Part shown: in pieces, positions 7,905 through 27,860 of the stretch
How the letters are laid out: each line of letters starts with the position of its first letter
Numbering within the stretch: position 1 is the first letter of the stretch
Source: Acidobacteriota bacterium
GTDB lineage: Bacteria; Acidobacteriota; Vicinamibacteria; Vicinamibacterales; JAFNAJ01
Reading direction: 5' to 3'
Assembly: GCA_023384575.1 (NCBI GenBank)
Contig: JAHDVP010000003.1
Coordinates: 137,086-201,085, forward strand
DNA: 64,000 bases
Position numbers and translations under genes: made by a program
Notes under the pieces: generated by a model
The model's database searches: none
What the model saw: the letters and a program-made list of their open reading frames with translations, nothing else
What the model was told of the DNA's origin: nothing

Positions 7905-9329
7905 TCACTCGAGACGGTGCTCGCGCATCTTCGCCGCGAGGTAGCGCACCGGGACCTGCAGCGCCTCGGCGGCCTTCGCGCGGTCGCCGCCATGCTGGGC
8001 GAGCGCCATCGCCACCTTGCGCCGCTCGGCCTCGAGCAGCACACGACGTGTGGCGTCGGCGAGACTCCCCGATAGATCGATCGACGCCCACGGGTCGACC
8101 GTGCCGGCGCTGGCGGGCTGCGCGGGCGCTGGCGCCTCGCCGGAGAACGCGAGGTGCAGGTGCGCCGGGTGGATCGTGTCGCCGTCGGCGAGGATGACGG
8201 CGCGCTCGAGGCAGTTCTGCAGCTCGCGCACGTTGCCCGGCCAGGGATACGCCATCAGCTCGTCGAGGGCCGCAGGCGACAACGTGAGGTCGCGCTTCTT
8301 CTGGTCGCGACAGAACCGCTCGACGAAGTGACGCGCCAGCAGCGGCACGTCCGCCGGCCGTTCGCGCAGCGGCGGGACCGTCACGGGAAAGACCGACAGC
8401 CGGAAGTAGAGATCCTCGCGGAACCTCCGGGCCGCGACCGCCGCACGGAGGTTGCGGTTGGTCGCCGCCACCACGCGCACGTCGACCTGCAGCGGCACGT
8501 TCCCGCCGAGGCGTTCGAAGGTCTTCTGCTCGAGCGCACGCAAGACCTTCGCCTGGAGGCCGAGCGGCAGATCGCCGATCTCGTCGAGAAACAGCGTGCC
8601 GCGATGGGCGACCTCGAACTTGCCGGGCTTGCGCGTCGCCGCGCCCGTGAACGCCCCCTTCTCGTAGCCGAACAGCTCGCTCTCGAGCAGCGTCTCGGGA
8701 ATCGCGGCGCAGTTGATGGCGACAAACGGCCCGTCGGCACGCGGGCTGAGCACGTGCAGCGTTCGCGCGATCAGTTCCTTGCCGGTACCGCTCTCGCCTT
8801 CGATCAGCACCGTCGTCTCGGCCGCCGCGGCGCGCTGCACCGAGGTCAGCACCCGCCTGAGGCTCTCGTGTTCGCCGACGATGTGCGGTGCGCCACGCCG
8901 GACGGCCAGTTCCTCCTTGAGGAGGAGGTTCTCGGTCGCCAGTCGCCGCTGTTCGAGCGCCCGCCCGATGAGCAGCAGCAGGTGGTCGGGATCGACCGGC
9001 TTCGCGAGGAAGTCGAGCGCCCCCTCGCGAACCGCACGGACCGCTTCTTCGACGCCCCCGTAGGCCGTCATCACGACGACCGGCATGTCGGGGTCGGCGG
9101 CCTTTGCGGCGCGCAGCACCCCGAACCCGTCGCCCGCGGGAAGGCGGAGATCGGAGAGCACCAGCCCGGGACGGCGATCGAGAAGGGCCTGTTCGGCCTC
9201 GGGCTGATCGCGTGCCTCGATGACCTCGTGCCCGCCGCGTTCGAGCGCGAGGCGCAACATCGACCGCAGCGAGTCCTTGTCCTCGACGAGCAACACCTCG
9301 ACGGGCGTCGAGACGCGGGGGCGCGTCAT
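7905..9329 (-). CDS. sigma-54-dependent response regulator (NtrC family)
   Basis: A 474-residue transcription activator with three domains. The receiver (about 10-125) has the phospho-acceptor Asp60 and Lys110. The AAA+ domain (about 148-380) has Walker A GESGTGKE at 178-185, the sigma-54-contacting GAFTGA at 225-230 and Walker [10 protein letters not shown]. The C-terminal helix-turn-helix is near 440-474. It would remodel sigma-54 RNA polymerase at its targets after phosphorylation. It is the last gene of the minor-pilin group, and the histidine kinase at 12427-13716 in the same gene string is its likely partner. It is clearly distinct from PilR at 20223, with a different tail and different receiver sequence. 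Its target promoters are not evident. Confidence 0.93.
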
Positions 9330-9351
9330 CGACCACCCCGGCCCGCGGCCG

Positions 9352-9909
9352 TCATTCCCGCCATGCGGCCGGAACGCCCGCCGTGTCGGCCTCGGCCTCG
9401 AGGGACGCCAGCGCCTTGAGCAAGGCGTCGAGGGCTTCGCGCCCCTCGGTCAGGTCGCGTGTCAGCGACGCACGCTGCGACGACAACGCCGCAACCCGCT
9501 CGGAGTCGCCGCCGACCTCCTCGGAGGGCAACGCGGCCACCTGCGCCTGCAGGTCGTCGACGCGCTCGCGTTGCTGGGCGATCGCCTCGCGCGCCTCGGC
9601 AAACCGCTTCCGCCACGCGGCCTCGTCCAGCTCGACGTCTCCCGGCGCCGCATCCGCGGCCGGGGGCTCGCCGCCCGGCGACTGACCTGACCGTGGCTCC
9701 TCAGGCGCAACGGGCGCTGCGACCGTCAGCGTGCCTTTCGGGACGTCGTCGTTGGTGTAGACCTTGGCGGGGGCCTTCACGGCCTTGCGGCGCTCGGCCT
9801 CCCGGCGAGAGAGCTCGGCGAGCGACGGCTGCTGGCCTCCGGCCAGCGCCGACGCCGGCGCGGCCACCAGGGCGGCGAGGAGGAGGACGGGCAAGGTGAA
9901 CCACTTCAT
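9352..9909 (-). CDS. secreted coiled-coil protein of unknown function
   Basis: A 185-residue protein not matched to a named family. Residues 1-24 form a signal peptide (MKW followed by a Leu/Ala-rich core, ending ASALAG). A charged helix rich in Glu/Arg follows (SRREAERRKAV), then VYTNDDVPKG, a short motif that recurs in secreted acidobacterial proteins by my recollection. After a Pro/Gly linker, residues about 95-180 have heptad-like Leu/Ala spacing typical of a coiled coil. The start at 9909 is chosen over an in-frame upstream ATG because it opens the signal peptide and has an AGAGGA ribosome binding site. It sits between the pilX-like gene and the second NtrC-type regulator, so a periplasmic role in pilus assembly is conceivable. 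Confidence 0.8.
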   Translation of the reverse strand: MKWFTLPVLLLAALVAAPASALAGGQQPSLAELSRREAERRKAVKAPAKVYTNDDVPKGTLTVAAPVAPEEPRSGQSPGGEPPAADAAPGDVELDEAAWRKRFAEAREAIAQQRERVDDLQAQVAALPSEEVGGDSERVAALSSQRASLTRDLTEGREALDALLKALASLEAEADTAGVPAAWRE

Positions 9910-10019
9910 GGCAAGTCCTCTCGAACGAGGTCGCCGCTCGCCTGACGCACCCGCGCCAGGACGGTCACGCGACAGACCATTCGTGTAATCGGCCGGAGCG
10001 CGCGAGGCCCCACTCGACC

Positions 10020-10652
10020 TCACGGGTCCCGGTGCCAGGTAACGATTTCAACATCCGTGCCACCGACGCGGCGCACCAGGGCGCCCAGCCACGCCTGCTC
10101 CGGACCCGGGCCGACCGCGACCGCCTGCAGGCGAACGGTCGAGTTGGTATCTGCCAGCGGTTGCCCATCGCCATCGTCTTCGTCGTCGGCCACCCAGACG
10201 GCAACGGATGGCCACGGTCCTGGAGCGTCGAGGGGAACCAGGGCCGCCAGATCGCCCCAGAGCCAGAGGCGCCACTGGGGTCGATTCGGGCCGGCCGTCC
10301 GAGCGTCGGTCCTGGCCTGCAGCGCCACGCCGAGGGCAGCCAGGTCGACGGCCCCGCCCGACTCGAGCGGCACGACCAGCGGACCGTCGCGGTAGTCGGA
10401 CGTCACGCTCCCCGTGAGCGCGTCGGTCCAGGCCAGCACGCGCCCAAGCTCGTCCACCGAAAGGGTGATGGCGCTCTCGGCCGCCAGCATAGCCTGATCG
10501 GCCCGCCGTTGGTGTGTCGTCATTCGCCAGTCGACGAGCACGTGCATGGCGAGCGTGCCCGCGAGCACCGCCATGGCGCCCGACAGGACCACGACGACCA
10601 GCAGGGCGCTGCCGCGGGTGTCGCCCGCAGGCCAGGGGCTACTGCAGGGCAC
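10020..10652 (-). CDS. PilX-like minor pilin assembly protein
   Basis: A 210-residue protein whose first 50 residues resemble the PilX N-terminal domain. RGSALLVVVVLSG opens a single membrane helix, and QRRADQAMLAAESAI is the typical segment after it. The remainder has no recognisable domain. A GTG at 10652 is taken as the start because it overlaps the end of the pilW-like gene and places the hydrophobic helix near the N-terminus; upstream in-frame codons would add a non-helical extension. Such proteins join other minor pilins at the pilus tip or priming complex in the inner membrane. It is the third of three coupled genes (pilV, pilW, pilX order). Family assignment rests mainly on the N-terminus and on position. 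Confidence 0.75.
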   Translation of the reverse strand: MPCSSPWPAGDTRGSALLVVVVLSGAMAVLAGTLAMHVLVDWRMTTHQRRADQAMLAAESAITLSVDELGRVLAWTDALTGSVTSDYRDGPLVVPLESGGAVDLAALGVALQARTDARTAGPNRPQWRLWLWGDLAALVPLDAPGPWPSVAVWVADDEDDGDGQPLADTNSTVRLQAVAVGPGPEQAWLGALVRRVGGTDVEIVTWHRDP

Positions 10653-11697
10653 GGGGGGAGACCTCGAAGCGAAGCCGCACGTCGGGCACGACGTGCGGCC
10701 CGGTGGCCAGCCCGGCGCGCAGGAATCTCGTGCCCGCCGAGCGCAGCAGAGGATCGGGCGTCTCGAGGCGGAGAGCGACCTCGAGCCGGCGGACACGCAG
10801 CAGGTCGGCGTCGAAGGCCGCCAGCCCCTCGCCGCACCAGGGACCGTCGGCCAGCGACGGCAAGGGCAGCGGAACGACCGCATCGGCTCCGCCGAGCGGG
10901 GCGAGCCGCGCGGTGCCGTCGGCATGACGGAGGCAGCCGTCCACCCCCTCGGGCACCGATGGGCCAGCCGGCGGCTCGGCAACGCCGAACCAGCGCACCT
11001 CGAAGGCCACCACGTGGTCGAGCCATGGCACGTCGGCTCCGCCGCCAGTCGCCACACGCACCTCACGTTGCGCTTCGCGCCAGTAGATCACCCTGACCTC
11101 AACGGGGAGGATCGCGGCCCGGACATCGGGGTGGAACCCGTGCGCGAGAGGCGTGGCGAGCACGGCAAGGCCCGAAGTCGACGATGCCACACTTGCCACC
11201 TCGGCGCGGCCGGTCGCGTCGACGAGCATCGCGATGTCGCCCGCGGCGAGTCCGCACGTCGCCGACGGGCCGCACCAGGTGGTCCCGTCGAAGGTCACCA
11301 CCGTGTCGCCGGGCCAGACGGGTGAGGAGAGTGGCGCCGCGGCCGCTCCCTCGGGCACGGATACGACGGCAAACCGCTCACCCGAGGCCGAGTCCGGGGC
11401 GTCTGGCATGGGCACGCCCCAGCGTCTTGGCAGCAGCACCGGAACGTGCCGGGAGAGGCGCCCCCCGGGTGGGGCCGAAAGGGCCCCGCGGCCAGCCGCC
11501 TGCAACTGCTCCGAGAGGAACGCCACGGCCCCACGGAGGTTCTGGTGAACGTCGATCGCGGCGGGCACGCGGTGACTGGTGCTCAAGGCGGCGTCGAGCA
11601 GCGGCCAGGCCACGGCCGCCACGAGCACGGCGAGTGCGAGCGAGACGACGAGCTCGGCCAGCGAGAACCCGTCGTGGCCTTTTCGCCCGGTCCTCAT
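10639..11697 (-). CDS. PilW-like minor prepilin
   Basis: A 352-residue prepilin. The short leader ends in Gly10, followed by Phe11 and Glu15 (GFSLAELVVSLALAVLV), the pattern cut and N-methylated by PilD. A large globular domain follows, with four cysteines (CGPSATC, DGCLRH and GPWCGEG) that could form two disulfides in the periplasm. Length and composition fit PilW. The ATG at 11697 overlaps the stop of the pilV-like gene (ATGA), so translation is probably coupled. Minor pilins of this type prime pilus assembly and are often surface exposed at the tip. Confidence 0.85.
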   Translation of the reverse strand: MRTGRKGHDGFSLAELVVSLALAVLVAAVAWPLLDAALSTSHRVPAAIDVHQNLRGAVAFLSEQLQAAGRGALSAPPGGRLSRHVPVLLPRRWGVPMPDAPDSASGERFAVVSVPEGAAAAPLSSPVWPGDTVVTFDGTTWCGPSATCGLAAGDIAMLVDATGRAEVASVASSTSGLAVLATPLAHGFHPDVRAAILPVEVRVIYWREAQREVRVATGGGADVPWLDHVVAFEVRWFGVAEPPAGPSVPEGVDGCLRHADGTARLAPLGGADAVVPLPLPSLADGPWCGEGLAAFDADLLRVRRLEVALRLETPDPLLRSAGTRFLRAGLATGPHVVPDVRLRFEVSPRALQ

Positions 11698-13744: not shown

Positions 13745-14521
13745 CTACTCGTAGAAGCCCGTGTACCAGAGGATGATGCCGTCGCCCCAGAGGCTGGCGA
13801 CGAGGGCGCCGACCGCCAGGAACGTGCCGAATGGCAGCTTGAGCTGGCCATCACCGCGGCCGAGCAGGATGAGCGCGCCGCCCACGAGCGCCCCGGTGAC
13901 CGACGCGAGAGCGAGGGTCAGCAGCATGGCCGGCCAGCCCAGAAAGGCGCCGATCATCGCGAGCATCTTGACGTCGCCGAAGCCGAGGCCGTCGACGCCC
14001 CGCCACAGGAAATAGGCCCAGGCAATCAGGTACGGCAGTCCCCCACCCGCCACGGCGCCGATGACCGCGCTCGTGAGGCCTGGTGGCAGCGCGAGGCTGA
14101 AGGCGAGCCCCGCGACGATGCCCGGCAGGGTGATGACGTTCGGCAGGATCTGGTGCTCGAGGTCGATGGCGAAGAGCGCGACCATCGCGGCGGCAAAGAG
14201 CAGCCGCGGCACGAGCAGCCACTCGGGCCCGATGACGGCCACGTGCAGCACGAAGAGGCCGCCCGTGACGGCTTCGACGATCGGATAGCGCGATGAGATG
14301 GGCGCACGGCACGACGCGCAACGTCCGCCGAGCACGAGGAAGCCGACGAGGGGCACGTTGTGCACCCAGCGAATCGGATGCCCGCACGCAGGGCAGCGCG
14401 ATGCCGGCCAGATGATGGACTCGCGCCGCGGCAGCCGGTGGATGCACACGTTGAGGAAGCTGCCGACCATCAGACCGAGCACACCGGCGAGCGCGGCGAG
14501 CGTCCACGCGTCGGCGGTCAC
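13745..14521 (-). CDS. pilD: prepilin peptidase / N-methyltransferase
   Basis: A 258-residue inner-membrane aspartic protease that removes prepilin leaders and methylates the new N-terminus. The cytoplasmic N-terminal domain has two CxxC zinc motifs (CPAC and CASC, about 44-75). The catalytic aspartates lie in FAIDLEHQILPN and GLGFGDVKML, the second being the GxGD motif. About seven to eight membrane helices are visible. The GTG at 14521 overlaps the upstream stop as GTGA and matches the usual family start. It serves the pilins at 18656-19799 and the minor pilins at 10020-12188. Confidence 0.96.
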   Translation of the reverse strand: MTADAWTLAALAGVLGLMVGSFLNVCIHRLPRRESIIWPASRCPACGHPIRWVHNVPLVGFLVLGGRCASCRAPISSRYPIVEAVTGGLFVLHVAVIGPEWLLVPRLLFAAAMVALFAIDLEHQILPNVITLPGIVAGLAFSLALPPGLTSAVIGAVAGGGLPYLIAWAYFLWRGVDGLGFGDVKMLAMIGAFLGWPAMLLTLALASVTGALVGGALILLGRGDGQLKLPFGTFLAVGALVASLWGDGIILWYTGFYE

Positions 14522-15453
14522 CGCAGCCCCCCTCCTGGCGGCTCGGTCGGCATCGGCCAGAGCGGCGAGTTGCGGGCCACCTCGACGCGGCCGGTCAGCG
14601 GGTCGAGCGCGAACGGTGTCGCCGTCGGGTCGAGCGGCGTGCCCCACACGAAGCCCCGGCGCTGCAGGTCGGCCCAGCGGTAGGGCGGTTGCCCGCCTGC
14701 GGCGCGGTAGCGGCGCACGGCGGCCGACAGCTCGTCGATGCGGTCGAGCGCGTCGAGTTGCTGAAGCCGCCGCGCCGAGTCCCTGCGAAGCCACTCGTTG
14801 TCGTCGGCGCTTTCGAGCAACGACCGCCACAGCGCCCGCGAGGCCTGCCGGTCGCCGCCCTGGACCAGTGTGGTGGCGGCGAGCGAACGCAAGAACCAGG
14901 GGGCACCCGGCACATCGGCGGCGCGATTGAACCAGTCGGCCGCCGCCTGGTAGTCGTGCAGCCACCAGTAGTGGATGAAGCCGATGTCCTGCATGTAGCG
15001 CCACGACCCGGGCCGGGCCTCGAGGCCGCGCTCGAGCAGCGCGATCGCCTGGTCTGGACGGCCGGGCCCACCCGGCGGGGCCTCGGCGAGGAAGAGCGAC
15101 CCGAACCGATAGGCGATGTTGAAGAGCGGGTCGAGCTCGGTCGCGATCGTCAGCAGCGGATGGAGCAGCTCGTACTTCTTCTCGCCCGTCGCGGCCCGAC
15201 GCGTCCCGCCGAAGTGCTGCAGCGCACGAATCCAGTACACGTCGGCCACCAGCGGATCGAACGAGAGGGCGAGCCGCTTCATCACGGCCGGCGACTGCAC
15301 GTAGAGCACCGACTCGGCGATGGGATCGCGCGGGTGCGATCGGTCGCGGACGACCTGGAGCGCCACGGCGGCGACGAGCAGGACGACGAGCAGACCGCCG
15401 AGGCGGCCGCCCCGCGGCGCCGGCACCACCGTCGCGCCTTCCACTCCACTCAC
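14518..15453 (-). CDS. membrane-anchored TPR-like protein of the pilus locus, function unknown
   Basis: A 311-residue protein with one hydrophobic helix near residues 15-35 (LGGLLVVLLVAAVALQVV) and a mainly helical remainder with weak tetratricopeptide spacing. Examples are LLTIATELDPLFNIAYRF and ALLERGLEARPGSWRYMQ. DPLVADVYWIRALQHFGG is a distinctive segment that looks conserved in related pilus loci as I recall them. The GTG at 15453 forms a GTGA overlap with the permease stop, and another GTG at 15444 is possible. Position between pilI and pilD suggests a role in pilus assembly, perhaps standing in for Myxococcus PilG. No enzymatic motif is seen. Confidence 0.8.
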   Translation of the reverse strand: MSGVEGATVVPAPRGGRLGGLLVVLLVAAVALQVVRDRSHPRDPIAESVLYVQSPAVMKRLALSFDPLVADVYWIRALQHFGGTRRAATGEKKYELLHPLLTIATELDPLFNIAYRFGSLFLAEAPPGGPGRPDQAIALLERGLEARPGSWRYMQDIGFIHYWWLHDYQAAADWFNRAADVPGAPWFLRSLAATTLVQGGDRQASRALWRSLLESADDNEWLRRDSARRLQQLDALDRIDELSAAVRRYRAAGGQPPYRWADLQRRGFVWGTPLDPTATPFALDPLTGRVEVARNSPLWPMPTEPPGGGLR

Positions 15454-16259
15454 TTGAAGTCCCGTCTCGAGAAGATCCAGACGGCCGCGACGAGCAGCAC
15501 GCCAATGTACGCCACACCGTACGCGGTGGTGAGTCCGACGTAGCCGAGCGCCACGGCCTGCCCGTGCACGACCTGCGCCTTGACATCGAACGGGGACAGG
15601 TTCGGCAGGACGTAGTACAGCACCCGCGCGATCCAGGCGACGACGGCCGAATCGACGACCTGTTCGAAGTTCCGCAGGTCGGCGTTGAAGTGGCCGACGA
15701 CGTAGAGGCCGAAGGTGAGCGCGGCCGACAACAGCGGGCTCGAGAACGTCGAGAAGAAGATGGCGAGGCCGGTGATGAGCGCCAGTTCGACGAAGATCAG
15801 GAAGATGGCGATCAGCAGCGCGGGATCGAGCGCCGGCGCCTCCCACACCGACCGCACCGCGTCGCTCGTCGTCCGGTCCATGTAGAGGAGCACGAGGCCG
15901 AGCGCCACGGCCATCACCGCGACGTTCACCGCCAGGGTCAGCACGAGGCCCAGGTACTTCGCGACGACGAACTGCGACCGCGTGATCGGCTTGGCGAGCA
16001 ACGCATAGACGCTGCGCCGCTCGACTTCTTTCGACACGAGGCCGATGCCGATGAAGACCGCGATGAAGAGGCCGAAGAGCGACGTCGCCGCCAGCCCGAG
16101 ATCCTTGATGATCTTCACCTCCTGGCCGGCGGTGAGCTGCCCGAGGAGCAGCGAGGCCGCAATCAGCAGGATGGCGAAGAAGACCAGGTTGTAGAGCACC
16201 TTGTCGCGAACCGACTCGCGGAACACGTTCACGGCGATGCGCCAGGTGGTGGCGAGCAC
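15450..16259 (-). CDS. pilI: ABC transporter permease, PilI-like by position
   Basis: A 269-residue ABC-2 type permease with six membrane helices. LGLAATSLFGLFIAVFIG and the segment KEVERRSVYALLAKPITRSQF resemble the NosY/GldF group. GTG at 16259 starts two nucleotides after the ATPase stop, so the two genes are a unit. In Myxococcus xanthus the pilH ATPase and pilI permease genes lie between pilA and pilD, which is the order seen here. The symbol is given on synteny, not sequence identity. The transported substrate is unknown even in the model organism. Confidence 0.83.
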   Translation of the reverse strand: MLATTWRIAVNVFRESVRDKVLYNLVFFAILLIAASLLLGQLTAGQEVKIIKDLGLAATSLFGLFIAVFIGIGLVSKEVERRSVYALLAKPITRSQFVVAKYLGLVLTLAVNVAVMAVALGLVLLYMDRTTSDAVRSVWEAPALDPALLIAIFLIFVELALITGLAIFFSTFSSPLLSAALTFGLYVVGHFNADLRNFEQVVDSAVVAWIARVLYYVLPNLSPFDVKAQVVHGQAVALGYVGLTTAYGVAYIGVLLVAAVWIFSRRDFK

Positions 16260-16261
16260 GG

Positions 16262-17224
16262 CTAGGCCTCCCCCTCGCCCATCCTCGACCAGTCCGCGGC
16301 GGCCACCTGCTTCACGAAGAGGTCTTCGAGCGTCTCGCGCACGGGGGTCACCGAGACGATGGCCGCGCCGAGCGCCGCGAGTTCCGGGACGACCTGCTCC
16401 GGCCGCCGATCCATGCCGAACTCGAGCGTGTAGCGTCCCTCGGCGATGCGGCTCGACCGCCGCGCGGCGGAGGACAACCGCGCCAGCGCGGCCTCTGCCA
16501 GCCCCTCGACGACGACCTCCCACCCGTGGGCCTTGAGGGCCAGCATGTCCGACAGCCGGCCGCTCGCCATCAGCCGGCCACGAGCGACGATGGCGACGCG
16601 ACTGCAGAGCGCCTCGGCGTCGGAGAGGATGTGCGAGCTGAAGAACACCGTGCGCCCCTCGTCGCGCAGGCTCAGGATCAGCGTCCGGACGTCACGGCGC
16701 CCGAGCGGGTCGAGCCCCGACATCGGCTCGTCGAGGAACACGACCTCAGGGTCGTTCACCAGGGCCTGAGCGATGCCCACGCGCTGGATCATGCCCTTCG
16801 AGAACTTCCGGAGTGGGAGCCGGCGCTCGGCGCCAATCTGCACGGTGTCGAGCAGGCGCGCGACCCGCCGGCGGCGCTCGTCGGCCGCGTAGCCGAAAAG
16901 GCCGGCGAAGTAGTCGAGCAGTTCCTCAGCGGTGAGGTAGTCGTAGAAGTACGGGTGCTCGGGAAGGTAGCCGATCCGCCGGCGCACCGATACGTCGCCG
17001 ACGGGCCGGCCGAGGACCCTGGCCTGGCCGGACGTCGGAAAGACCAGCTGCATCAGCAGCTTCAGCGTCGTCGTCTTGCCGGCGCCGTTCGGCCCGAGGA
17101 AACCAAACACCTCGCCGGGCTCGACGGCGAGGGTGAGGCGGTCGAGCGCCCGATAGGGTCGCGGGCGCCAGAAGCCGACGCGGTAGTCTTTCGTGAGCTC
17201 GTCGGTCGCGATCGCTGCGGCCAT
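16262..17224 (-). CDS. pilH: ABC transporter ATPase, PilH-like by position
   Basis: A 320-residue ATP-binding subunit. Walker A is GPNGAGKTT, the signature is the less usual [15 protein letters not shown], and Walker B is [15 protein letters not shown]-terminal extension of about 90 residues follows the switch His ([10 protein letters not shown]), as in the NatA/NosF group. ATG at 17224 is preferred over a GTG six bases upstream. It pairs with the permease gene downstream. Its location between pilin and pilD genes matches M. xanthus pilH, whose loss abolishes social motility according to published work on pilGHI. Confidence 0.88.
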
Positions 17225-17269
17225 CGTCACGGGGGAAATGCAAGATTCCGGCCGGACCAGGCGGCCCCT

Positions 17270-18538
17270 CTACCTCGTCGCACCAGCCTTCCGCAGTTCG
17301 TACCCGATGATGGCGTCGAAGAACTGCGGCTGGAGCCCGCCCTCGACCTTGACGCCGTTGATGAAGAAGGTCGGCGTCGCCCCGACGCGCAGCAGCCCTC
17401 CGAGCGCGATGTCGGCCTTCACCTGCTCGACGACCACCGGGTAGCGCTCGTCGAAGTCGGTGCGCCCCGCGATCTCGGCCAGAGCGGCCTTGATGCCGGC
17501 CGGCGTCAGCGTCGCTTGATTGGCGAAGAGCCAGTCGTCCATGCGCTCGCGCTGCCCCTTCTCGTCGGCGAGCCTTGCGGCCACCGCTGCCGCACACGCG
17601 CTGCGGTGCGTGCCGCCGGGCGTGCCGGCATTGCACGCGGGGTCGATCGGATAGTCCTTGTTGACGAACTTCACGCGACCGGGGTGCTCGGCTTCGTACC
17701 TCGCGAGGATCGGCTTGTAGGCCTGATGCGTCGACCCGCAGGGCGGGCACTGGTGATCGTTGAACTTCACGATGACCACCGACGCCCCCTGCCCGTCGAC
17801 CGGCACGATGCTGCGCGGCTGGCTGTCGAACCAGCGCTCGACCTCGGCGCGCTGGTCCTGCGGCAGGGTCGCGGCAGGGTTGGGGTTGGCCGCGGGGCCA
17901 GCCGCCATGCCGGCCGCGACGTCTGCGACGCTCGCGCTGCCTTTCGGGAACCAGGCGACTGCCGTCGCCGCACCCACCACCAGGACGAACAGGAACGCCA
18001 GGGCTGCCGGCGTACCGAGCGCGCGCGCGTCGCGCAGCGCACGGGACGGCAGGGTGGCCATCGGAAAGGACGTCGCCATCGCCGAACCCACGAACAGGCC
18101 GATCACGGCCACATACGTCACCAGACACAAGAGGCACAGGGTCCTGATCACGAAGAACGCCCCGTACCCGAGGTGGAGCACGAACGCCAGGCCAACGACC
18201 GACAGAGCCAGGACGTAGCCGGGCACGCTCTCGCGCACGTGGGCCGACCCGTGCCGTTCGGCGAGCAGCAGCCCGACGACCGCGACGAACCAGAGCAGAC
18301 CGAACACCGCCACCGGCACGCCGAGCAGGTAGCCGTAGGCGCTCTGGTACGCGTTGGCGCAGCTCCAGGTCGTGTTGATGTCGCAGAAGCTCGTGTACCC
18401 AGGGCTGCGGAGCAGCTGGAAGTGGACCCACGCCGAGGACGCCGACGCGCCAAGGCCGAGCAGCGCGAAGACCCAGAAGGCGATCCGAAGCCTGGGCGAG
18501 AGGGGCACGACAGGTGGCGGTCCCGCTTTCTTGGCCAT
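17270..18538 (-). CDS. VKOR-DsbA fusion (disulfide-forming oxidoreductase)
   Basis: A 422-residue fusion. Residues about 15-155 are a VKOR domain of four to five membrane helices with loop cysteines Cys52 and Cys60 and the redox pair CLLC (135-138). After another helix and a Pro/Ala linker, residues about 235-420 form a DsbA-like thioredoxin domain with CPPC (264-267) and the cis-Pro segment GATPTFFING. In this architecture the thioredoxin half oxidises periplasmic proteins and the VKOR half passes electrons to quinone, replacing DsbB. Two extra cysteines (DPACNAGTPGGTHRSAC) may form a structural disulfide. It sits between the second pilin and pilH, which suggests that pilins or pilus proteins are its clients. 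Confidence 0.94.
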   Translation of the reverse strand: MAKKAGPPPVVPLSPRLRIAFWVFALLGLGASASSAWVHFQLLRSPGYTSFCDINTTWSCANAYQSAYGYLLGVPVAVFGLLWFVAVVGLLLAERHGSAHVRESVPGYVLALSVVGLAFVLHLGYGAFFVIRTLCLLCLVTYVAVIGLFVGSAMATSFPMATLPSRALRDARALGTPAALAFLFVLVVGAATAVAWFPKGSASVADVAAGMAAGPAANPNPAATLPQDQRAEVERWFDSQPRSIVPVDGQGASVVIVKFNDHQCPPCGSTHQAYKPILARYEAEHPGRVKFVNKDYPIDPACNAGTPGGTHRSACAAAVAARLADEKGQRERMDDWLFANQATLTPAGIKAALAEIAGRTDFDERYPVVVEQVKADIALGGLLRVGATPTFFINGVKVEGGLQPQFFDAIIGYELRKAGATR

Positions 18539-18655: not shown

Positions 18656-19153
18656 CTACTGGATGGGTGAGATCGTTCCGCCGGCGGTGAAGGGCTCCGG
18701 CGGGGGCACGCCTGTCAGATCCTGCCAGATGGTCCCGGCCTGGTTCGTCGAGAAGCCCCGGCGGCCGGTGGTCGCCGAAAGCGGCGTCCCCGTGGCGTAA
18801 TAGGCGGTCACCGGGACGGTCGCATCGCAGGCAATCGGCCCGGCCTGCGAGTTGAGGCCGGCTGCCAGCGCGAAGTTGAAACCCGACCGCGGATTGAACC
18901 CCATGTCCTCCGACAGGAACGCCCCGGCGATGAGGTCGTCCACGTCGACGGCGTACGATCCCCGCGCGCACGAGGCCGCATAAGTGGACTGGGCGCTGTT
19001 GATCGCACGCAGCGAACCAATCGCCGAAGCTTCGTTGCCCGAGGCCCTGGCCGCCATCAGGAAAGGCGCCGTGAGGGCCGACAGGATGCCGATGAGCGCG
19101 ACGACGATGAGGAGTTCGACCAGCGTGAACCCCGATGTCTGCCTGCTTTGCAT
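18656..19153 (-). CDS. type IV pilin, second copy
   Basis: A 165-residue prepilin with Gly8/Phe9 cleavage site and Glu13 (SGFTLVELLIVVALIGI). It is clearly a paralogue of the pilin directly upstream, sharing GNEASAIGS, the INSAQ-TY block, AYYAT, the TNQ-GT-WQD block and the ending GGTISPIQ. Two cysteines, Cys62 (SCARG) and Cys109 (IACD), could pair. The ATG at 19153 has an AGAGGAGC site about 9 nt upstream. An upstream ATG at 19174 would lengthen the leader and lacks a ribosome binding site at a useful distance. It is separated from pilin 1 by a perfect hairpin, so it may be expressed less. Confidence 0.93.
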   Translation of the reverse strand: MQSRQTSGFTLVELLIVVALIGILSALTAPFLMAARASGNEASAIGSLRAINSAQSTYAASCARGSYAVDVDDLIAGAFLSEDMGFNPRSGFNFALAAGLNSQAGPIACDATVPVTAYYATGTPLSATTGRRGFSTNQAGTIWQDLTGVPPPEPFTAGGTISPIQ

Positions 19154-19799: not shown

Positions 19800-19905
19800 G
19801 GACTCGCTCCTCTGAGAAAGAACCGGTGAACGTGACGGGCTCGTAAGCCGTGGGGCGTGGTCGCGCTCACTCGGTGCCGACCGTTGCCTCGTGCCCGTTC
19901 TATGA

Positions 19906-19920
19906 GCAACCCGGATGCCA
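19906..19920 (-). promoter_or_regulatory. sigma-54 promoter for pilA
   Basis: The minus strand reads TGGCATCCGGGTTGC, matching the sigma-54 consensus TGGCAC-N5-TTGC at all but one position, with exactly 10 nt between GG and GC. It predicts a start near 19894 and a 95-nt leader to the pilA ATG. It lies directly downstream of pilS-pilR, whose product is a sigma-54 activator. Confidence 0.75.
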
Positions 19921-20222: not shown

Positions 20223-21734
20223 CTACAGGCTGTATTTCTTCAAATAATACCGGAACGACCGGAAGCTCATGCCGAGCAGATCGGCGGCGCGCGTCTTCAC
20301 ACCGCCGGCCCGGCGCAGCGCCTCGGCCAGGTAGGCCGACTCCACCTGCTGGACGTGCCGTTCGAGGTCGAAGCCGGTCTCGGGAAAATCGACGGCAGCC
20401 GACGCGCTGGGCCCGGAGTCGACCGACGCCGCGCCCATGCCCGAGGGCGGCCGCGGCGCGTGCCGCACGTGATCGGGCAGGCTGTCGACGAGGATGGTGG
20501 GCGTCTGCTCGAGCGCGACCGCGCGTTCCATCGCATTCTCGAGCTCGCGGATGTTCCCCGGCCAGCCGTAGCGTTGCAGGCAGGCCATCGCCTCGCGCGA
20601 CAGCCCCGCGACGCGCTTCTCCATCCTCGCGGCGAAGCGCTCCACGAAGTGCTGGGCGAGCAGCGGGATGTCCTCGACGCGCTCGCGCAGCGGTGGCAGC
20701 AGCAGGGGAATCACGTTGACACGGTAGAAGAGGTCCTCGCGGAACCTGCCCTCGGCCACGTACTGCGGCAGGTCGCGGTTGGTCGCGGCGATGATGCGGA
20801 TGTCGGCCTCGATCTCCTCGGTCCCGCCGACGCGCCGGAACCGCCGCTCCTGCAGGACGCGCAGCAGCTTCACCTGCATGAGCGGACTCATCTCGCTGAT
20901 CTCGTCGAGGAAGATCGTGCCCTTCTCGGCGACCTCGACGAGCCCCTTCTTGTTGGTCGCGGCCCCGGTGAAGGCCCCGCGGACGTGACCGAACAGCTCC
21001 GACTCGAGCAGCGTCTCGGTGAGCGCCCCGCAGTTGAGGGCCACGAACGGACGGTCGCGCCGCAGCGAGTGCAGGTGGATGGCGCGCGCGGCGAGTTCCT
21101 TGCCCGTGCCCGATTCCCCGGTCACCAGCACGGTGCTGCTCGTCGGCGCGATCGTCTCGATGAGACGGAACACCGCGAGCATCGCCTCGCTCCGGCCGAT
21201 GATGTTGGCGAACTCGTGCCGGCGGTCGAGCTCGCGTTTGAGCAGCAGGTTCTCCCGGCGCAGCGCCTGCCGCTCGACCTCCTTGCGCACCTTCAGCTTC
21301 AGCTCGTCGACGTCGAAGGGCTTGGTGAGGTAGTCGCTCGCGCCGAGGCGGAGGGCCTCGACCGCCGTTTCGGTCGAGGCGAACGCGGTGATCACGATGC
21401 CGGCCAGTTCGGGGTCGATGGCCCGGGCGGCGCGCAGCACCTCGACGCCGCTCATGTCGGGCATCTTGAGGTCGGATACGAGCACGTCGAAGCGCCCCTG
21501 CTCGAGCGCCGCGAGCGCCTGGCGGCCGTTCTCCGCCGCGACGACGTCGTAGCCCTCCCGCGTCATCACGATGGTCAGCAGCTCGCGCATCGACAGCTCG
21601 TCGTCGGCCACGAGCACCCGGGGCGCGGGTCGGGCCCCAGGCAGGGCGGTCGCGCCCCCGCCCGGGGGCCGCTGCCCGGCGACCGGGCCGGCGGGCGTCA
21701 CGCCACTCGTGGATGTCGGCATGCTCCGGCTCAT
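20223..21734 (-). CDS. pilR: pilus two-component response regulator
   Basis: A 503-residue NtrC-family activator. After a Pro/Gly-rich N-terminal 38 residues comes the receiver, with Asp88 and Lys138. The AAA+ domain follows, with Walker A GESGTGKE (206-213) and GAFTGA (253-258). A Fis-type helix-turn-helix is at the C-terminus ([21 protein letters not shown]). It should activate the sigma-54 promoter upstream of pilA. The ATG at 21734 overlaps the pilS stop by one base (TGATG); a GTG three bases earlier is also possible. The N-terminal tail before the receiver is longer than usual. Confidence 0.95.
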
Positions 21735-23470
21735 CACGCCGACAGGCGCTCTGGCGCGGCGTCGAGTCGGTTCGACCGCGCCGGCACGGCGTCGGAGAGG
21801 GCGAGAGGTGCGGCCGCGACGGCGTCGGCCTCGCCCGGCAGCGTGATGGTGACCTCCGTGCCCTCGCCTTCAATCGACGACACGCGGACCTCGCCGCCGT
21901 GGTCGCTCACGATGCGGTGGACGATCGCGAGGCCGAGGCCCGCCCCGCGTGGGAAGGACGAGCGGAACGGGTGGAAGACGTGATCGAGGTCGTCGGGGGC
22001 GATCCCGACCCCCTCGTCGCGCACGCGCAAGACAACGCCGCCCTCCGGCAGGTCGGCCCGCTCGGTCGAGAGCTCGAGCCGCCCGCCGCGCGGCATGGCG
22101 CGCAAGCCGTTGGTGGCGAGGTTCCACACGATCTGCTTGACCTGCGCCTCGTCGGCCGTCACCCAGATCGCCCCCTCGTCGCTCTCGACGCGCACGTCGT
22201 GAGCCGGACCACACTCCGAACCGTTCCTGATGAGGAGCGCGGTGTCCTCGAGCAGCCGCCGCAGGTCGACCCTGGTGGCCTCGCGCCGCGCGGGCCTGGC
22301 GTACGACAGCAGCTCGGCAATCGTCTCGTTGAGCCGCCGTGATTCGCGCAGGACGATGTCCATCAGCTGGGCCTGTTGCGCGGTCAACGTCAGTTCCTGG
22401 CGCAGCAGCTGGATCGACCCGGTCATCGACGCGAGCGGGTTGCGGATCTCGTGTGCGATACCCGCCGCCATCTCGCCCACCGCCGCGAGCCGCTTCTGCA
22501 ACTGCGCCTCGGCCTCGAGCCGCTTGGCCTCGGTCACGTCCTGGAACGACACGATGAAGCCCGACTGACCCGTCGAGGTCACGAGCGGCGCGATGCTGAG
22601 ACCGAGCGCGATGCGCCCGCCCGACGGCCTCACGAACGCGCTCTCGAGACGGCGGGCCCGGCCGGTCGCGACGAAGCCGTCGAGCGACCCCCGCACGTCG
22701 TCCGACAACTGGAGCACGTCCCAGACCGGCTGGTTCACCGCGTCGCGCGGGGAGACGCCCGTGATGGCCTCGGCGGCGCGATTGAACGTCAGGATGCGCC
22801 CGCCGGGGGTGGTCGTGACGAGACCACCGGTCAGGCTGTCGATCACGTGCTGGTTGAAGGCGCGCAGATCGGCAATCTGCGTCGAGGCGCGCTCGAGCCT
22901 CGCGCCGGCGCTCTCGAGGCTCTCCGCGAGGTAGCCGGCCAGCAGCCCGACGACGACGAAGCCCGCGCCGTTGAGGAACACGATCGCCGCCGCCTGGCGT
23001 GCGGCGGGCAGATCGAGCCCGGCCGAATCGAGCGGCCCGAGGTACTGGGCGAGCACGATGCCGGCGTACAGCGTGGCGCCGAGCGAGGCGACGAGCATGC
23101 CGCCCCGTCGGCGGGCGACTACGGCGCCCGCGACGACCGGCACGACGTAGAAGGTCGCAAACAGGCTCGTGATGCCACCGGTGGCGAGCACGATCGCCGA
23201 GACGATGCACGAGTCGGCGGCAAGCTGGGCGTCGACGAGCCAGCGGTGTCGCGGGACGTACCGGAGCGTTGCGGCGTAGATCCCGGTGAGCGCGAAGGTG
23301 ACGGCGATGAGCGTGAAGAGCGGGTCGGCCGTCACGGCGGCGAGCACCCCGCGCGCTCGCAGCAGGACCGCCGCGCCGAGCAACACCGCGAGCGACACGG
23401 CGCGCAGGCCAATCAGCCAGAGCAGCCGCCGTCGCAACGCGGTGTCGTCGTCCGCACTCCGTCCCGGCAT
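21734..23470 (-). CDS. pilS: pilus sensor histidine kinase
   Basis: A 578-residue PilS-type kinase. Residues about 14-185 carry six membrane helices with almost no periplasmic domain, typical of PilS. A PAS domain (about 205-315) precedes the HisKA helix with His340 (GIAHEIRNPLASM), followed by the ATPase domain with NLATNGLRAM, DEGVGIAPDD and GAGLGLAIV. The start overlaps the pilC stop by one base. In Pseudomonas, PilS senses pilin level through the membrane and controls PilR phosphorylation, and the adjacent pilR-pilA arrangement supports the same circuit here. Confidence 0.95.
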   Translation of the reverse strand: MPGRSADDDTALRRRLLWLIGLRAVSLAVLLGAAVLLRARGVLAAVTADPLFTLIAVTFALTGIYAATLRYVPRHRWLVDAQLAADSCIVSAIVLATGGITSLFATFYVVPVVAGAVVARRRGGMLVASLGATLYAGIVLAQYLGPLDSAGLDLPAARQAAAIVFLNGAGFVVVGLLAGYLAESLESAGARLERASTQIADLRAFNQHVIDSLTGGLVTTTPGGRILTFNRAAEAITGVSPRDAVNQPVWDVLQLSDDVRGSLDGFVATGRARRLESAFVRPSGGRIALGLSIAPLVTSTGQSGFIVSFQDVTEAKRLEAEAQLQKRLAAVGEMAAGIAHEIRNPLASMTGSIQLLRQELTLTAQQAQLMDIVLRESRRLNETIAELLSYARPARREATRVDLRRLLEDTALLIRNGSECGPAHDVRVESDEGAIWVTADEAQVKQIVWNLATNGLRAMPRGGRLELSTERADLPEGGVVLRVRDEGVGIAPDDLDHVFHPFRSSFPRGAGLGLAIVHRIVSDHGGEVRVSSIEGEGTEVTITLPGEADAVAAAPLALSDAVPARSNRLDAAPERLSA

Positions 23471-24681
23471 CAGGTCAGCTTCGAGATGAGGTCGAAGATC
23501 GGCATGTACATCGCGATGACGATGCCGCCGACCACCACGCCCAGAAACGCGATCATCACCGGCTCGAGCAGGGTCAGGAGGCCCGCCACGGCCGTGTCGA
23601 CCTCGTCCTCGTAGAAATCAGCGATCTTCGAGAGCATCATGTCGAGCGCGCCCGTCGTCTCGCCGACGTTGATCATCTGCGTGACCATCGGCGGGAAGAC
23701 CTTGGTGGCGGCGAGCGGGGCCGACACGGTCTCGCCACGCTCGATGCTCTCGCGGGTCTTGACGATCGCGTCTTCGATGATGGCGTTGCCCGCGGTCTTC
23801 GCCGTGATGTCGAGGCCGTCGAGGATGGGCACGCCCGAGCTGAGCAGCGTGGAGAGCGTGCGGCAGAACCGCGCCACCGCCACCTTGCGCAGGATCACGC
23901 CGAGGATGGGCAGCCGCAGCGCCAGCCCGTCGACCACCCGGCGGCCCCGGTAGGTGCTGTAGAACTGCCGGAACGCGAAGCTCAGCACGACGAGGCCGAC
24001 GAGGACGAACGGCGCCCACGTCACGAGCGAGTTGCTCATCCAGATCACGACCCGGGTGGGCAGCGGCAGCTGGGCGCCGAGACCCGCGAACAGGGCCGCG
24101 AAAGTCGGGATGACCTTCCACAGGATGACCGCCACGACGGCCGCGGCGATCACCATGACGGCGACCGGGTAGATCATCGCCGACTTGACCTGGGCCTTCA
24201 GCTTGACGTTCTTCTCGATGTACGTCGCCAGGCGCTTCAGGATCGTGTCGAGAATGCCGCCTGCCTCGCCCGCGGCCACCATGTTGGTGTAGAGCGCGTC
24301 GAAGGCCTTCGGGAACTTCCGCATCGCGTCGGCCAGCGACGCGCCGCCCTCGACCTCCTCGCGGGTGCGAAGGATGGTCTGCGCGAAGCCCTTGTGCTCT
24401 TCCTGCTTGCCAAGAATATCGAGGCACTGCACGAGCGGCAGGCCGGCGTCGATCATCACCGAGAACTGCCGGGTGAAGATCGCGAGATTCTTCGTCGGCA
24501 CCGACCGGCCCCTGGCCGATGGCCCCGCCTTGACGACCTTCGGCTTGGCCGGGTCGATCTTGGTGACGAGAATCTGCTCTCGCCGCAGGTTGGCCATGGC
24601 GGCTTCGAGCGTATCGGCGACCCGCTCGCCGGTGACCGCTTGCCCGCCGCGTGTCCGCCCCGAGAATGCGTAGGTCGGCAT
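23470..24681 (-). CDS. pilC: type IV pilus inner-membrane platform protein
   Basis: A 403-residue GspF/PilC protein with two repeated cytoplasmic helical domains, about 70-190 and 275-390. They are joined through three membrane helices near 170-195, 215-240 and 375-398. The repeats are seen as LPLVQCLDIL and VPILDGLDIT, and as AGEAGGILDTIL and VGETTGALDMML. It recruits the PilB and PilT motors and feeds pilins into the fibre. It lies 30 nt downstream of pilT and overlaps pilS. Confidence 0.97.
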   Translation of the reverse strand: MPTYAFSGRTRGGQAVTGERVADTLEAAMANLRREQILVTKIDPAKPKVVKAGPSARGRSVPTKNLAIFTRQFSVMIDAGLPLVQCLDILGKQEEHKGFAQTILRTREEVEGGASLADAMRKFPKAFDALYTNMVAAGEAGGILDTILKRLATYIEKNVKLKAQVKSAMIYPVAVMVIAAAVVAVILWKVIPTFAALFAGLGAQLPLPTRVVIWMSNSLVTWAPFVLVGLVVLSFAFRQFYSTYRGRRVVDGLALRLPILGVILRKVAVARFCRTLSTLLSSGVPILDGLDITAKTAGNAIIEDAIVKTRESIERGETVSAPLAATKVFPPMVTQMINVGETTGALDMMLSKIADFYEDEVDTAVAGLLTLLEPVMIAFLGVVVGGIVIAMYMPIFDLISKLT

Positions 24682-24711: not shown

Positions 24712-25836
24712 TTACGCCTGCCGCCGCATCGGCGTGCCGCGGCCGAGCCCCGCACCCGGCACCACGCCCGAACCGCGGTTGATCATCTCGAGCAGTTCGT
24801 CCTTGAGCGAGCTGGCCGAGAGGGCCGTCTCGAGCGTGATCTGCCCCGACAGGTACAGCGTCGCCAGACACTGGTTCATCGTCTGCATGCCGAGCTTCTC
24901 CTGACCGGCCTGCATCGCGGAGTAGATCTGGTGAATCTTGTCCTCGCGGATCAGGTTGCGAATGGCCGGCGTCGGCACCAGAATCTCGAGCCCGACGATG
25001 CGGCCTGGCACCTTCGACCGGCGCAGGAGCGTCTGGCAGACGATGCCCTCGAGGACGAGGGAGAGCTGGGTCCGGATCTGCCCCTGCTGGTGTGCCGGGA
25101 AGACATCGATGATGCGGTTGATCGTCTGCGAGGCCGAGTTCGTGTGGAGCGTCGCGAACGTGAGGTGACCGGTCTCGGCGATCCGCAGCGCCGACTCGAT
25201 GGTCTCGAGGTCGCGCATCTCGCCGATGAGCACCACGTCGGGGTCCTCGCGCAGCGCCGCCCTGAGCGCGATGCCGAAGCCCGTGGTGTCGCTGTGCACC
25301 TCGCGCTGGTTCACCACGCAGCCCTTGTGCTCGTGGATGTACTCGATCGGATCCTCGATCGTCAGGATGTGCTCGTTACGCTCGTTGTTGATCTTGTCGA
25401 GCATCGCGGCGAGCGTCGTCGACTTGCCGCTGCCGGTGGGCCCGGTCACCAGCACCAGGCCGCGGGGCCGCTCGGCGAGCTTGGCGATGACGGGCGGAAG
25501 GCCGAGCTCGTGAAAGCCGCGGACCCGTTCGGGAATCACACGGTAGACCGAAGCCACGGCGCCCCGCTGGTTGAACACGTTGCAGCGGAAGCGCCCGACG
25601 CCGCGCACGCCAAAGGAGAAGTCCAGCTCGAGCGTTTCTTCGAACCGCTTCTTCTGGGCGTCGGTGCACACGCTGTAGGCGAGCTGCTTGGTCTGGGCCG
25701 GCGAGAGCGGCGGCAGATCCAGCCGCTGCAGCTTGCCGTGCACGCGGATCTGCGGCGGGCTGTTGGTCGTCAGGTGAAGGTCGGAGCCCTCCATCTCGAC
25801 GGTCTTCTTCAGGAGTTCCGGCAGGGTCATCGGCAT
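24712..25836 (-). CDS. pilT: pilus retraction ATPase
   Basis: A 374-residue hexameric secretion ATPase that powers pilus disassembly. Walker A is GPTGSGKST (132-140), the Asp box is LTIEDPIEYIH, Walker B is PDVVLIGEMRD and the His box is GHLTFATLHTNSA. AIRNLIRE near 295 is the PilT-specific retraction motif. Start MPMT at 25836 has GAGGG upstream; the internal ATG two codons on is an alternative. It lacks the long N-terminal domain of PilB. A 281-nt structured gap separates it from pilB. Confidence 0.98.
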   Translation of the reverse strand: MPMTLPELLKKTVEMEGSDLHLTTNSPPQIRVHGKLQRLDLPPLSPAQTKQLAYSVCTDAQKKRFEETLELDFSFGVRGVGRFRCNVFNQRGAVASVYRVIPERVRGFHELGLPPVIAKLAERPRGLVLVTGPTGSGKSTTLAAMLDKINNERNEHILTIEDPIEYIHEHKGCVVNQREVHSDTTGFGIALRAALREDPDVVLIGEMRDLETIESALRIAETGHLTFATLHTNSASQTINRIIDVFPAHQQGQIRTQLSLVLEGIVCQTLLRRSKVPGRIVGLEILVPTPAIRNLIREDKIHQIYSAMQAGQEKLGMQTMNQCLATLYLSGQITLETALSASSLKDELLEMINRGSGVVPGAGLGRGTPMRRQA

Positions 25837-26117: not shown

Positions 26118-27860
26118 CTACCTGACGGTCTCGCGGACGACTTCCTCGATCGTCGTGAGGCCGTCGCGGATCTTGCGCAAACCGCTCTGGCGGAGGGAGA
26201 TCATGCCTTCTTCGACGGCCTTCCGGCGCAGCTCGATGGCCGAGGCCCCCACGAGCACCAGTTCGCGGATCTCGTCGGCCACGTCCATGACCTCGTACAG
26301 GCCGACGCGGCCCTTGTAGCCGGTGCCGTTGCACTTTTCGCACCCCTCACCGTGCATCGGCGTGACCGTGGCCGCGACATCCGGGGGATAGCCGACGTCG
26401 ACGAGCGCGGCCGGGGGGACGGGGTGGGGCGCCTTGCAGTTGGTGCAGATGCGCCGCACGAGGCGCTGGGCGCAGATGAGGTTGACCGAGCTCGCGACGA
26501 GGAACGGCTCGATGCCCATGTTCATGAGGCGGTTGATGGTGCTCGGCGCGTCGTTGGTGTGCAGCGTCGACAGCACCATGTGGCCGGTCAGTGCCGCCTT
26601 GACGGCGATCTCGGCGGTCTCGAAGTCGCGAATCTCGCCGACGAGGATGATGTTCGGGTCCTGCCGCAGGAACGAGCGCAGCGCGGCCGCGAAGTTCAGG
26701 CCGATGTTGTCGCGGACCTGCACCTGGTTGACGCCGGGCAGGTTGAACTCCACAGGGTCCTCGGCGGTCATGATGTTCGTCTCGGCCGTGTTGAGGCGCG
26801 AGATCGCCGAGTAGAGCGTGTTGGTCTTGCCGCTGCCGGTCGGACCGGTCACGAGGCACATGCCCCAGGGCTTGAGGATGGCGGCCTCGAACTTCGAGAG
26901 CGACTCGGGCTCGAACCCGAGGCGCGTCATGTCGAGCATCAGCTTGTCGCGATCGAGCAGGCGGAGCACGATCTTCTCGCCGAAGAGCGTCGGCAGGCAC
27001 GATACGCGGAAGTCGATCTCCTTCGACCGGCCGGCGTCGTTGTAGCGGATCTTGATCCGGCCGTCCTGCGGCAGCCGCTTCTCGGCGATGTCGAGCTTCG
27101 CCATGATCTTGATCCGCGACGTGATCGCGTCGCGGAACTTCATCGGCGGCGCCATCACGTTGTACAGGATGCCGTCGATGCGGAACCTCACGCGGAACTC
27201 GCGCTCGTACGGCTCGATGTGGATGTCGCTTGCGCCCTTCTGGATCGCCGACATCAGCGTCAGGTTCACCAGACGGATGACCGGCGCCTCGCCGCTCTGC
27301 CGCTCGAGCGAACCGACGTCGAGCTCCTCGAGGTCTTCGAGCACCTCGACGTCCCCGTCCTGCACGAGGGGCATTTCCTCGAGGGCTCTCGTCGCCACGT
27401 CGAGCGCCGATGTCACGGGAGCCGACGGCTGCCGGATGACGCCGTAGTACTTCTGGATCGCCGCCAGGACCGCCGCCTCGGACGACACGACCGGTTCGAC
27501 GTTGTACCCCGTCATGAACTTGATGTCGTCCATGGCGAAGACGTTCGTCGGATCGGTCATCGCGATCGTCAGCGTCGCGCCCGATCGGCTGAGCGGGATG
27601 ATCTGGTACTTCTGCGCGGTCTCGGAGGGAATGAGCTTGATGACCGCCGCGTCGACCTCGAACTGGGCCAGGTTGATCGACGGCACGCCGTACTGCTTGC
27701 TGAGCAGGGCCGTGATCTCCTCGTCGCGCACGAAGCCCAGCTTGACGAGATTGAGGCCGAGCTTCCCCCCGTTGGCCTTCTGGTAGTTCAAGGCCTCCTG
27801 GAGCTGCTGCGGAGTGATCTTCTTCTCCTTGAGAAGAAGCTCGCCAATACGGACGGCCAT
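26118..27860 (-). CDS. pilB: pilus extension ATPase
   Basis: A 580-residue assembly motor. Residues about 1-145 form a MshEN-type N-terminal domain (IGELLLKEKKITPQQLQEAL), a fold that binds c-di-GMP in some homologues. The ATPase core carries ASDIHIEP, Walker A GPTGSGKT near 339-346, Walker B NIILVGEIRDFET and the His box LSTLHTNDA. A four-cysteine zinc site follows (CTNC near 475, CEKC near 510). Start MAVRIGE at 27860 follows GAGGGACGAG. It is the first pilus gene of the cluster after a PorV-like gene. Confidence 0.98.
   Translation of the reverse strand: MAVRIGELLLKEKKITPQQLQEALNYQKANGGKLGLNLVKLGFVRDEEITALLSKQYGVPSINLAQFEVDAAVIKLIPSETAQKYQIIPLSRSGATLTIAMTDPTNVFAMDDIKFMTGYNVEPVVSSEAAVLAAIQKYYGVIRQPSAPVTSALDVATRALEEMPLVQDGDVEVLEDLEELDVGSLERQSGEAPVIRLVNLTLMSAIQKGASDIHIEPYEREFRVRFRIDGILYNVMAPPMKFRDAITSRIKIMAKLDIAEKRLPQDGRIKIRYNDAGRSKEIDFRVSCLPTLFGEKIVLRLLDRDKLMLDMTRLGFEPESLSKFEAAILKPWGMCLVTGPTGSGKTNTLYSAISRLNTAETNIMTAEDPVEFNLPGVNQVQVRDNIGLNFAAALRSFLRQDPNIILVGEIRDFETAEIAVKAALTGHMVLSTLHTNDAPSTINRLMNMGIEPFLVASSVNLICAQRLVRRICTNCKAPHPVPPAALVDVGYPPDVAATVTPMHGEGCEKCNGTGYKGRVGLYEVMDVADEIRELVLVGASAIELRRKAVEEGMISLRQSGLRKIRDGLTTIEEVVRETVR

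What the first reader, a model, noticed from the sequence alone, without database searches (positions are those of the whole stretch)
17270..18538. A VKOR-DsbA fusion embedded in the pilus operon, with paired cysteines in its neighbours
Both pilins have exactly two cysteines in the globular part (78/118 and 62/109) and the PilW-like protein has four. A disulfide-forming fusion placed between pilin and pilHI genes suggests a dedicated oxidative folding system for this pilus, replacing general DsbA/DsbB. I know of no such pilus-linked VKOR described.
Basis: partly seen in the sequence, partly recalled or inferred. Interest (0 to 1): 0.6.

Follow-up and report, generated by a model that had tools for sequence, protein, structure and literature searches.

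The report
Disulfide-making enzyme inside a pilus operon
In one order of soil Acidobacteria, the fused enzyme that makes protein disulfide bonds is encoded directly beside the gene for the main pilus protein, which in these loci always carries exactly two cysteines; the enzyme is a known type and is probably the cell's general one, so its fixed place in the pilus operon, not its chemistry, is what is new.

Summary
The window belongs to Vicinamibacterales (Acidobacteriota). Relatives of the fusion occur in 114 of 120 genomes of the order. In all 39 loci read in detail it lies just downstream of pilA, including five without pilH. All 101 intact, distinct pilins carry exactly two cysteines, drawn from three slots (A+C 83, B+C 16, A+B 2). 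Slot swaps happened at least about five times on the tree without breaking the pair: strong evidence for one disulfide per pilin. "Dedicated, replacing general Dsb" is not supported. Elsewhere in the phylum, operons without the fusion carry pilins with 0-6 cysteines. One genome of the order lacks every detectable Dsb gene yet keeps two-cysteine pilins. Nearly all these genomes hold further DsbA-like genes. In 21 of 26 genomes this is the only VKOR above cut-off, and 18 of those 21 lack a full-length DsbB, so it is more likely the cell's main oxidase, housed in the pilus operon. VKOR-DsbA fusions are known; VKOR-linked pili were described in Actinomyces and suggested for CPR bacteria.

The parts
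17270..18538 (-). VKOR-DsbA fusion, 422 aa
   Evidence: Pfam VKOR and Thioredoxin_4; model matches VKOR and DsbA structures
18089..18478 (-). VKOR domain (residues 21-150); loop pair C52/C60 and active-site C135-X-X-C138
   Evidence: domain; invariant cysteines
17948..18004 (-). fifth hydrophobic segment (residues 179-197) joining VKOR to DsbA
   Evidence: hydropathy
17306..17785 (-). DsbA-like domain (residues 252-411), C264-P-P-C267, cis-Pro type TPT motif, extra pair C302/C315
19266..19799 (-). PilA-type pilin 1, cysteines 78/118 (slots B+C)
   Evidence: N_methyl, PilA_Myxo partial match
18656..19153 (-). PilA-type pilin 2, cysteines 62/109 (slots A+C)
16262..17230 (-). PilH-like ABC ATPase, 39 bp after the fusion
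15450..16259 (-). PilI-like ABC-2 permease
14518..15444 (-). TPR protein kept in the operon of relatives
13745..14521 (-). PilD prepilin peptidase
   Evidence: Peptidase_A24
20223..21737 (-). PilR response regulator
   Evidence: ORF and identity to relatives
21734..23470 (-). PilS histidine kinase
23470..24681 (-). PilC
24712..25836 (-). PilT
26118..27860 (-). PilB
10639..11697 (-). PilW-like minor pilin with four cysteines
19905..19920 (-). sigma-54-like -24/-12 element TGGCATCCGGGTTGCT about 105 bp upstream of pilin 1 (candidate only)
   Evidence: such matches are as frequent as chance in the window overall

Best explanation
The protein is a self-contained disulfide generator. The C-terminal periplasmic DsbA domain would pass its disulfide to substrates, and the N-terminal membrane VKOR domain would re-oxidise it with quinone. 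It is encoded in the type IVa pilus operon and most likely forms the single intramolecular disulfide of the major pilins next to it before they are assembled. In most of these genomes it is also the only VKOR and the only recognisable quinone-coupled oxidase, so it probably serves other envelope proteins and the separate DsbA-like proteins too. Shown here: the fusion, its conserved catalytic cysteines, the stable place beside pilA, and the strictly kept two-cysteine pattern of the pilins. Inferred: the enzymatic activity, the pilin disulfide itself, and that this enzyme makes it.
For: Both domains with all catalytic cysteines and the cis-proline motif are invariant in the order, and the model matches DsbA and VKOR structures. 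Relatives of the fusion are in 114 of 120 genomes of the order. A pilin lies directly upstream in 39 of 39 loci, also in five loci lacking pilH. 72 of 72 upstream pilins have exactly two cysteines; 101 of 101 intact distinct sequences do, in three slot combinations, with at least about 5 changes on the tree and never an odd count. In contrast, 66 pilins elsewhere in the phylum have 0, 1, 2, 4 or 6 cysteines. G058 lost the VKOR half, kept a DsbA half at the pil locus, and has a full-length DsbB elsewhere. Of 26 order genomes with the fusion, 21 have one VKOR above the cut-off and 18 of those lack a full-length DsbB match. Within the phylum outside the order, genomes with pilins of two or more cysteines more often have a VKOR or DsbB (18 of 20 against 10 of 21, Fisher p = 0.006, not corrected for kinship).
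Against: G007 keeps two-Cys pilins with no detectable VKOR, DsbB or DsbA, so the pair can persist without this machinery, unless its genes lie in the missing 6% of that genome. The even-cysteine bias of other exported proteins in the home genome is weak (19 even, 17 odd, against 41/70 in cytoplasmic proteins, p = 0.12), so general substrates are neither shown nor excluded.
Confidence: 0.72

Rival explanations
1. A pilus-dedicated system: the fusion oxidises pilus proteins only, and other proteins are served by separate Dsb enzymes.
For: Stable place beside pilA, also where pilH and pilI are missing; strict cysteine pairs in adjacent pilins; separate DsbA-like genes exist and some relatives have a neighbouring dsbA-dsbB pair elsewhere (G021, G032, G036, G097).
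Against: In 18 of 21 genomes with a single VKOR no full-length DsbB is found, so the other DsbA-like proteins would have no recognisable re-oxidising partner except this VKOR.
Confidence: 0.15
2. The general oxidase of the cell happens to sit in the pilus operon for historical reasons, and pilins are not a special client.
For: It is the only VKOR in most genomes; pilin operons elsewhere in the phylum with 2-6 Cys pilins work with unlinked or no VKOR; G007 pilins keep the pair without it.
Against: The link persists across the sampled families of the order and survives the loss of intervening operon genes; adjacent pilins show a strict two-cysteine rule not seen in pilins elsewhere in the phylum.
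Confidence: 0.25
3. The fusion acts mainly on other pilus parts such as the PilW-like minor pilin, an adhesin or the secretin, and the pilin pair is oxidised without enzymatic help.
For: PilW-like proteins of the operon usually have 4-6 cysteines; G007 shows pilin pairs without Dsb genes.
Against: Minor pilins vary from 0 to 6 cysteines including odd counts, whereas the adjacent major pilins never vary from two.
Confidence: 0.12

Closest known systems
VKOR-thioredoxin-like/DsbA fusions (Synechococcus sp. VKOR; Clostridium sp. CsVKOR-DsbA, which restores disulfide formation in an E. coli dsbA dsbB double mutant, PMC12453122)
   Same: Same domain order, VKOR first and a DsbA/thioredoxin-like domain last; same catalytic cysteines and cis-proline motif.
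   Different: The known ones are treated as general oxidases; this one has a fixed place in a type IV pilus operon.
MdbA/VKOR of Actinomyces oris and oxidative folding of sortase-built pili (PMC5478893; Reardon-Robinson 2015 and Luong 2017 as cited in PMC6744442)
   Same: A VKOR re-oxidises a DsbA-like enzyme that folds pilus proteins.
   Different: Separate genes, Gram-positive sortase pili, general MdbA; no type IV pilus operon.
CPR bacteria: MdbA-like family and adjacent VKOR proposed to serve type IV pilins (PMC6744442)
   Same: The same proposal for type IV pili from genome content, VKOR next to a DsbA-like gene.
   Different: Not described there as fused or as lying inside the pilin operon; found in CPR bacteria, not Acidobacteriota.
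Myxococcus xanthus pil cluster and PilA (PMC11046646)
   Same: PilA is the nearest fold match (weak), pilGHI-type ABC genes accompany the pil cluster (PMC6060248), and the pilin has disulfides.
   Different: M. xanthus PilA has two disulfides and two free cysteines; no VKOR-DsbA was found described for that cluster in the papers searched.

Membership tests
VKOR family (PF07884) | Profile match above the curated cut-off | tested here: met
   84.0 bits against a cut-off of 27.5
VKOR family (PF07884) | Loop cysteine pair and C-X-X-C in a membrane helix bundle | tested here: met
   C52/C60 and C135/C138 invariant in the order; hydrophobic segments
VKOR family (PF07884) | Quinone-dependent disulfide generation | not testable with these tools
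   biochemistry needed
DsbA/Thioredoxin_4 oxidoreductase | Thioredoxin-like fold with C-X-X-C and cis-proline motif | tested here: met
   Thioredoxin_4 41.7 bits over 23.2; C264/C267 and TPT invariant; Foldseek to DsbA structures at E 6e-6
DsbA/Thioredoxin_4 oxidoreductase | Oxidase rather than reductase or isomerase activity | not testable with these tools
   redox potential or complementation needed
Type IVa pilus operon gene | Stable place inside the pil cluster among relatives | tested here: met
   39 of 39 loci in the order
Pilus-dedicated oxidative folding system | No other general DsbA/VKOR in the genome | tested here: not met
   Two further Thioredoxin_4 genes in the home genome, further ones in nearly all relatives; no second VKOR
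Pilus-dedicated oxidative folding system | Pilin cysteine pairs appear and vanish with the fusion | tested here: not met
   G007 and other families keep pairs without an operon fusion

The most novel reading that the evidence does not exclude
In Vicinamibacterales the cell's main disulfide generator became a part of the pilus operon, so that oxidative folding capacity of the envelope rises and falls with pilus expression (PilSR and possibly sigma-54).
Probability: 0.15. Interest if true: 0.6.

Novelty: new variant of a known kind. Interest (0 to 1): 0.42.

Why it matters
It gives a clear case, conserved through an order of Acidobacteria, in which the enzyme that makes disulfides is encoded with the main pilin. 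The pilins show an unusually clean record of one disulfide being kept while its cysteines change place. It makes a testable system for pilin oxidation outside the usual models, and it warns that genomes lacking dsbB may carry their oxidase in a pilus operon.

Tried and rejected
A second copy of the fusion explaining the link: second copies exist in a few genomes (one lies beside MsrP/MsrQ-like genes) but are rare. Pilus linkage of VKOR-DsbA in other phyla: no pil genes recognised near the Bdellovibrionota full-length fusions. The DsbB-like match in the home genome as a general oxidase: it matches only the first half of the profile, has CVLC but no second loop cysteine pair, and is joined to another domain, so it was not counted as a full DsbB. 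The VKOR of G033 was set aside as a likely contaminant: short contig, standalone VKOR with its own DsbA. The single three-cysteine pilin (L008) was dropped as a probable frameshift, judged from its scrambled C-terminal sequence. Secretome cysteine parity was underpowered. The literature searches found no description of this linkage in Acidobacteriota.

Full report
The finding. The gene at 17270-18538 on the - strand encodes a 422-residue protein with an N-terminal VKOR domain (Pfam E 1.3e-23) and a C-terminal DsbA-like Thioredoxin_4 domain (E 1.8e-10). It has five hydrophobic segments and eight cysteines. All eight are invariant in an alignment of 16 diverse relatives, together with a TPT motif of the cis-proline type. 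An AlphaFold model (mean pLDDT 84.6, linker poorly predicted) matches DsbA structures and VKOR structures in the PDB.

Where it lives. Named relatives are Vicinamibacterales and other Acidobacteriota. In the order, 114 of 120 sampled genomes have a match; most are full-length, some are truncated at contig ends. In the rest of the phylum only distant matches appear, most of them to the DsbA half. The gene order pilB-pilT-pilC-pilS-pilR-pilA(1-3)-fusion-pilH-pilI-TPR-pilD is kept. In 39 loci read in detail a pilin lies directly upstream of the fusion in all 39 (38 by the strict script count; in L267 an over-long pilC reading frame disturbed the sort order, my reading). PilH is present in 34, and five loci lack pilH while the fusion stays beside pilA and pilD. 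One further locus (G077, L014) keeps fusion and pilH but has an unrelated gene upstream, so the link is not absolute.

The pilin cysteines. All 72 pilins within 4.5 kb upstream of the fusion have exactly two cysteines; some of these loci are the same genome under two names. Among 102 distinct pilin sequences from these loci and from G007, 101 have exactly two and one probable frameshifted sequence has three. The pairs use three alignment slots: A+C in 83, B+C in 16, A+B in 2. On a tree built without those columns the slot pattern changed at least about five times, with three changes forced by well-supported branches for the B+C label, and the count of two was never broken. Single free cysteines would be expected to come and go one at a time; a rule of 'two of three slots' is what a disulfide leaves.

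Is it dedicated? Three results speak against that. First, in 66 pilins of 41 genomes outside the order (two of them from the same class) the counts are 0 (27), 1 (7), 2 (9), 4 (21) and 6 (2), often in pilA-pilH operons that lack any VKOR. Cysteine pairs in pilins thus do not need an operon-borne fusion. Second, G007, of the same order, has three two-Cys pilins directly followed by pilH, and no match to VKOR, DsbB, Thioredoxin_4 or DSBA in a 94%-complete genome. Third, DsbA-like genes besides the fusion exist in the home genome and in 31 of the 32 other genomes searched, while a second VKOR is usually absent: of 26 order genomes with the fusion, 21 have exactly one VKOR above the cut-off. Only three of those 21 have a full-length DsbB match; three more, including the home genome, have a half-match of doubtful function. 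The simplest reading is that this is the main quinone-coupled oxidase, shared by pilins and others.

A natural replacement. G058 has lost the VKOR half: a membrane-anchored DsbA half remains at the pil locus, and a full-length DsbB lies elsewhere. The pilins there keep slots A+C. This fits a DsbA domain that serves the pilins and is re-oxidised by VKOR or, after the swap, by DsbB. At genome level, outside the order, pilins with two or more cysteines go with a VKOR or DsbB (18 of 20 against 10 of 21, p = 0.006), without correction for kinship.

Known relatives. VKOR-DsbA fusions are known from Synechococcus and Clostridium, and the Clostridium one restores disulfide formation in E. coli dsb mutants (PMC12453122). 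In Actinomyces oris the electron transport chain feeds disulfide formation for sortase-built pili through MdbA (PMC5478893). In CPR bacteria an MdbA-like family with adjacent VKOR was proposed to serve type IV pilins (PMC6744442). I found no paper on this linkage in Acidobacteriota, in a library that lacks most subscription journals.

Verdict. The mechanism, oxidation of the pilin disulfide by the neighbouring fusion, is likely but inferred. The exclusive, dedicated reading is not supported. The enzyme kind is known; its fixed place in a type IVa pilus operon across an order, as usually the only VKOR, is the new part.

Noticed in passing
L160 about 9313-10596 (own genome contig C34, 39.3 kb): An ORF joins a zinc-ribbon start (CARCGNTLS...CGYCG), hydrophobic segments and a PilA-like globular domain with the same two cysteine slots, but no prepilin motif.
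   Followed up: partly
L210 9750-11378 (own genome contig C4, 49.9 kb): DsbB-like half with CVLC but without the second cysteine pair, joined to a propeller-like domain; similar half-matches in six relatives.
   Followed up: partly
G007, L150: A genome of the order with no detectable VKOR, DsbB, Thioredoxin_4 or DSBA gene, yet with two-cysteine pilins; unexplained.
   Followed up: partly
L155 8336-9052 (G058): Only the DsbA half of the fusion remains at the pil locus; a DsbB lies elsewhere in the genome.
   Followed up: yes
L263 4845-6068 (G002): Second VKOR-DsbA copy outside the pil operon, beside MsrP/MsrQ-like genes and a MoaA-like gene.
   Followed up: partly
window 19905-19920 (-): Sigma-54-like element about 105 bp upstream of the first pilin; plausible for a PilR-controlled operon but not significant by count.
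   Followed up: no
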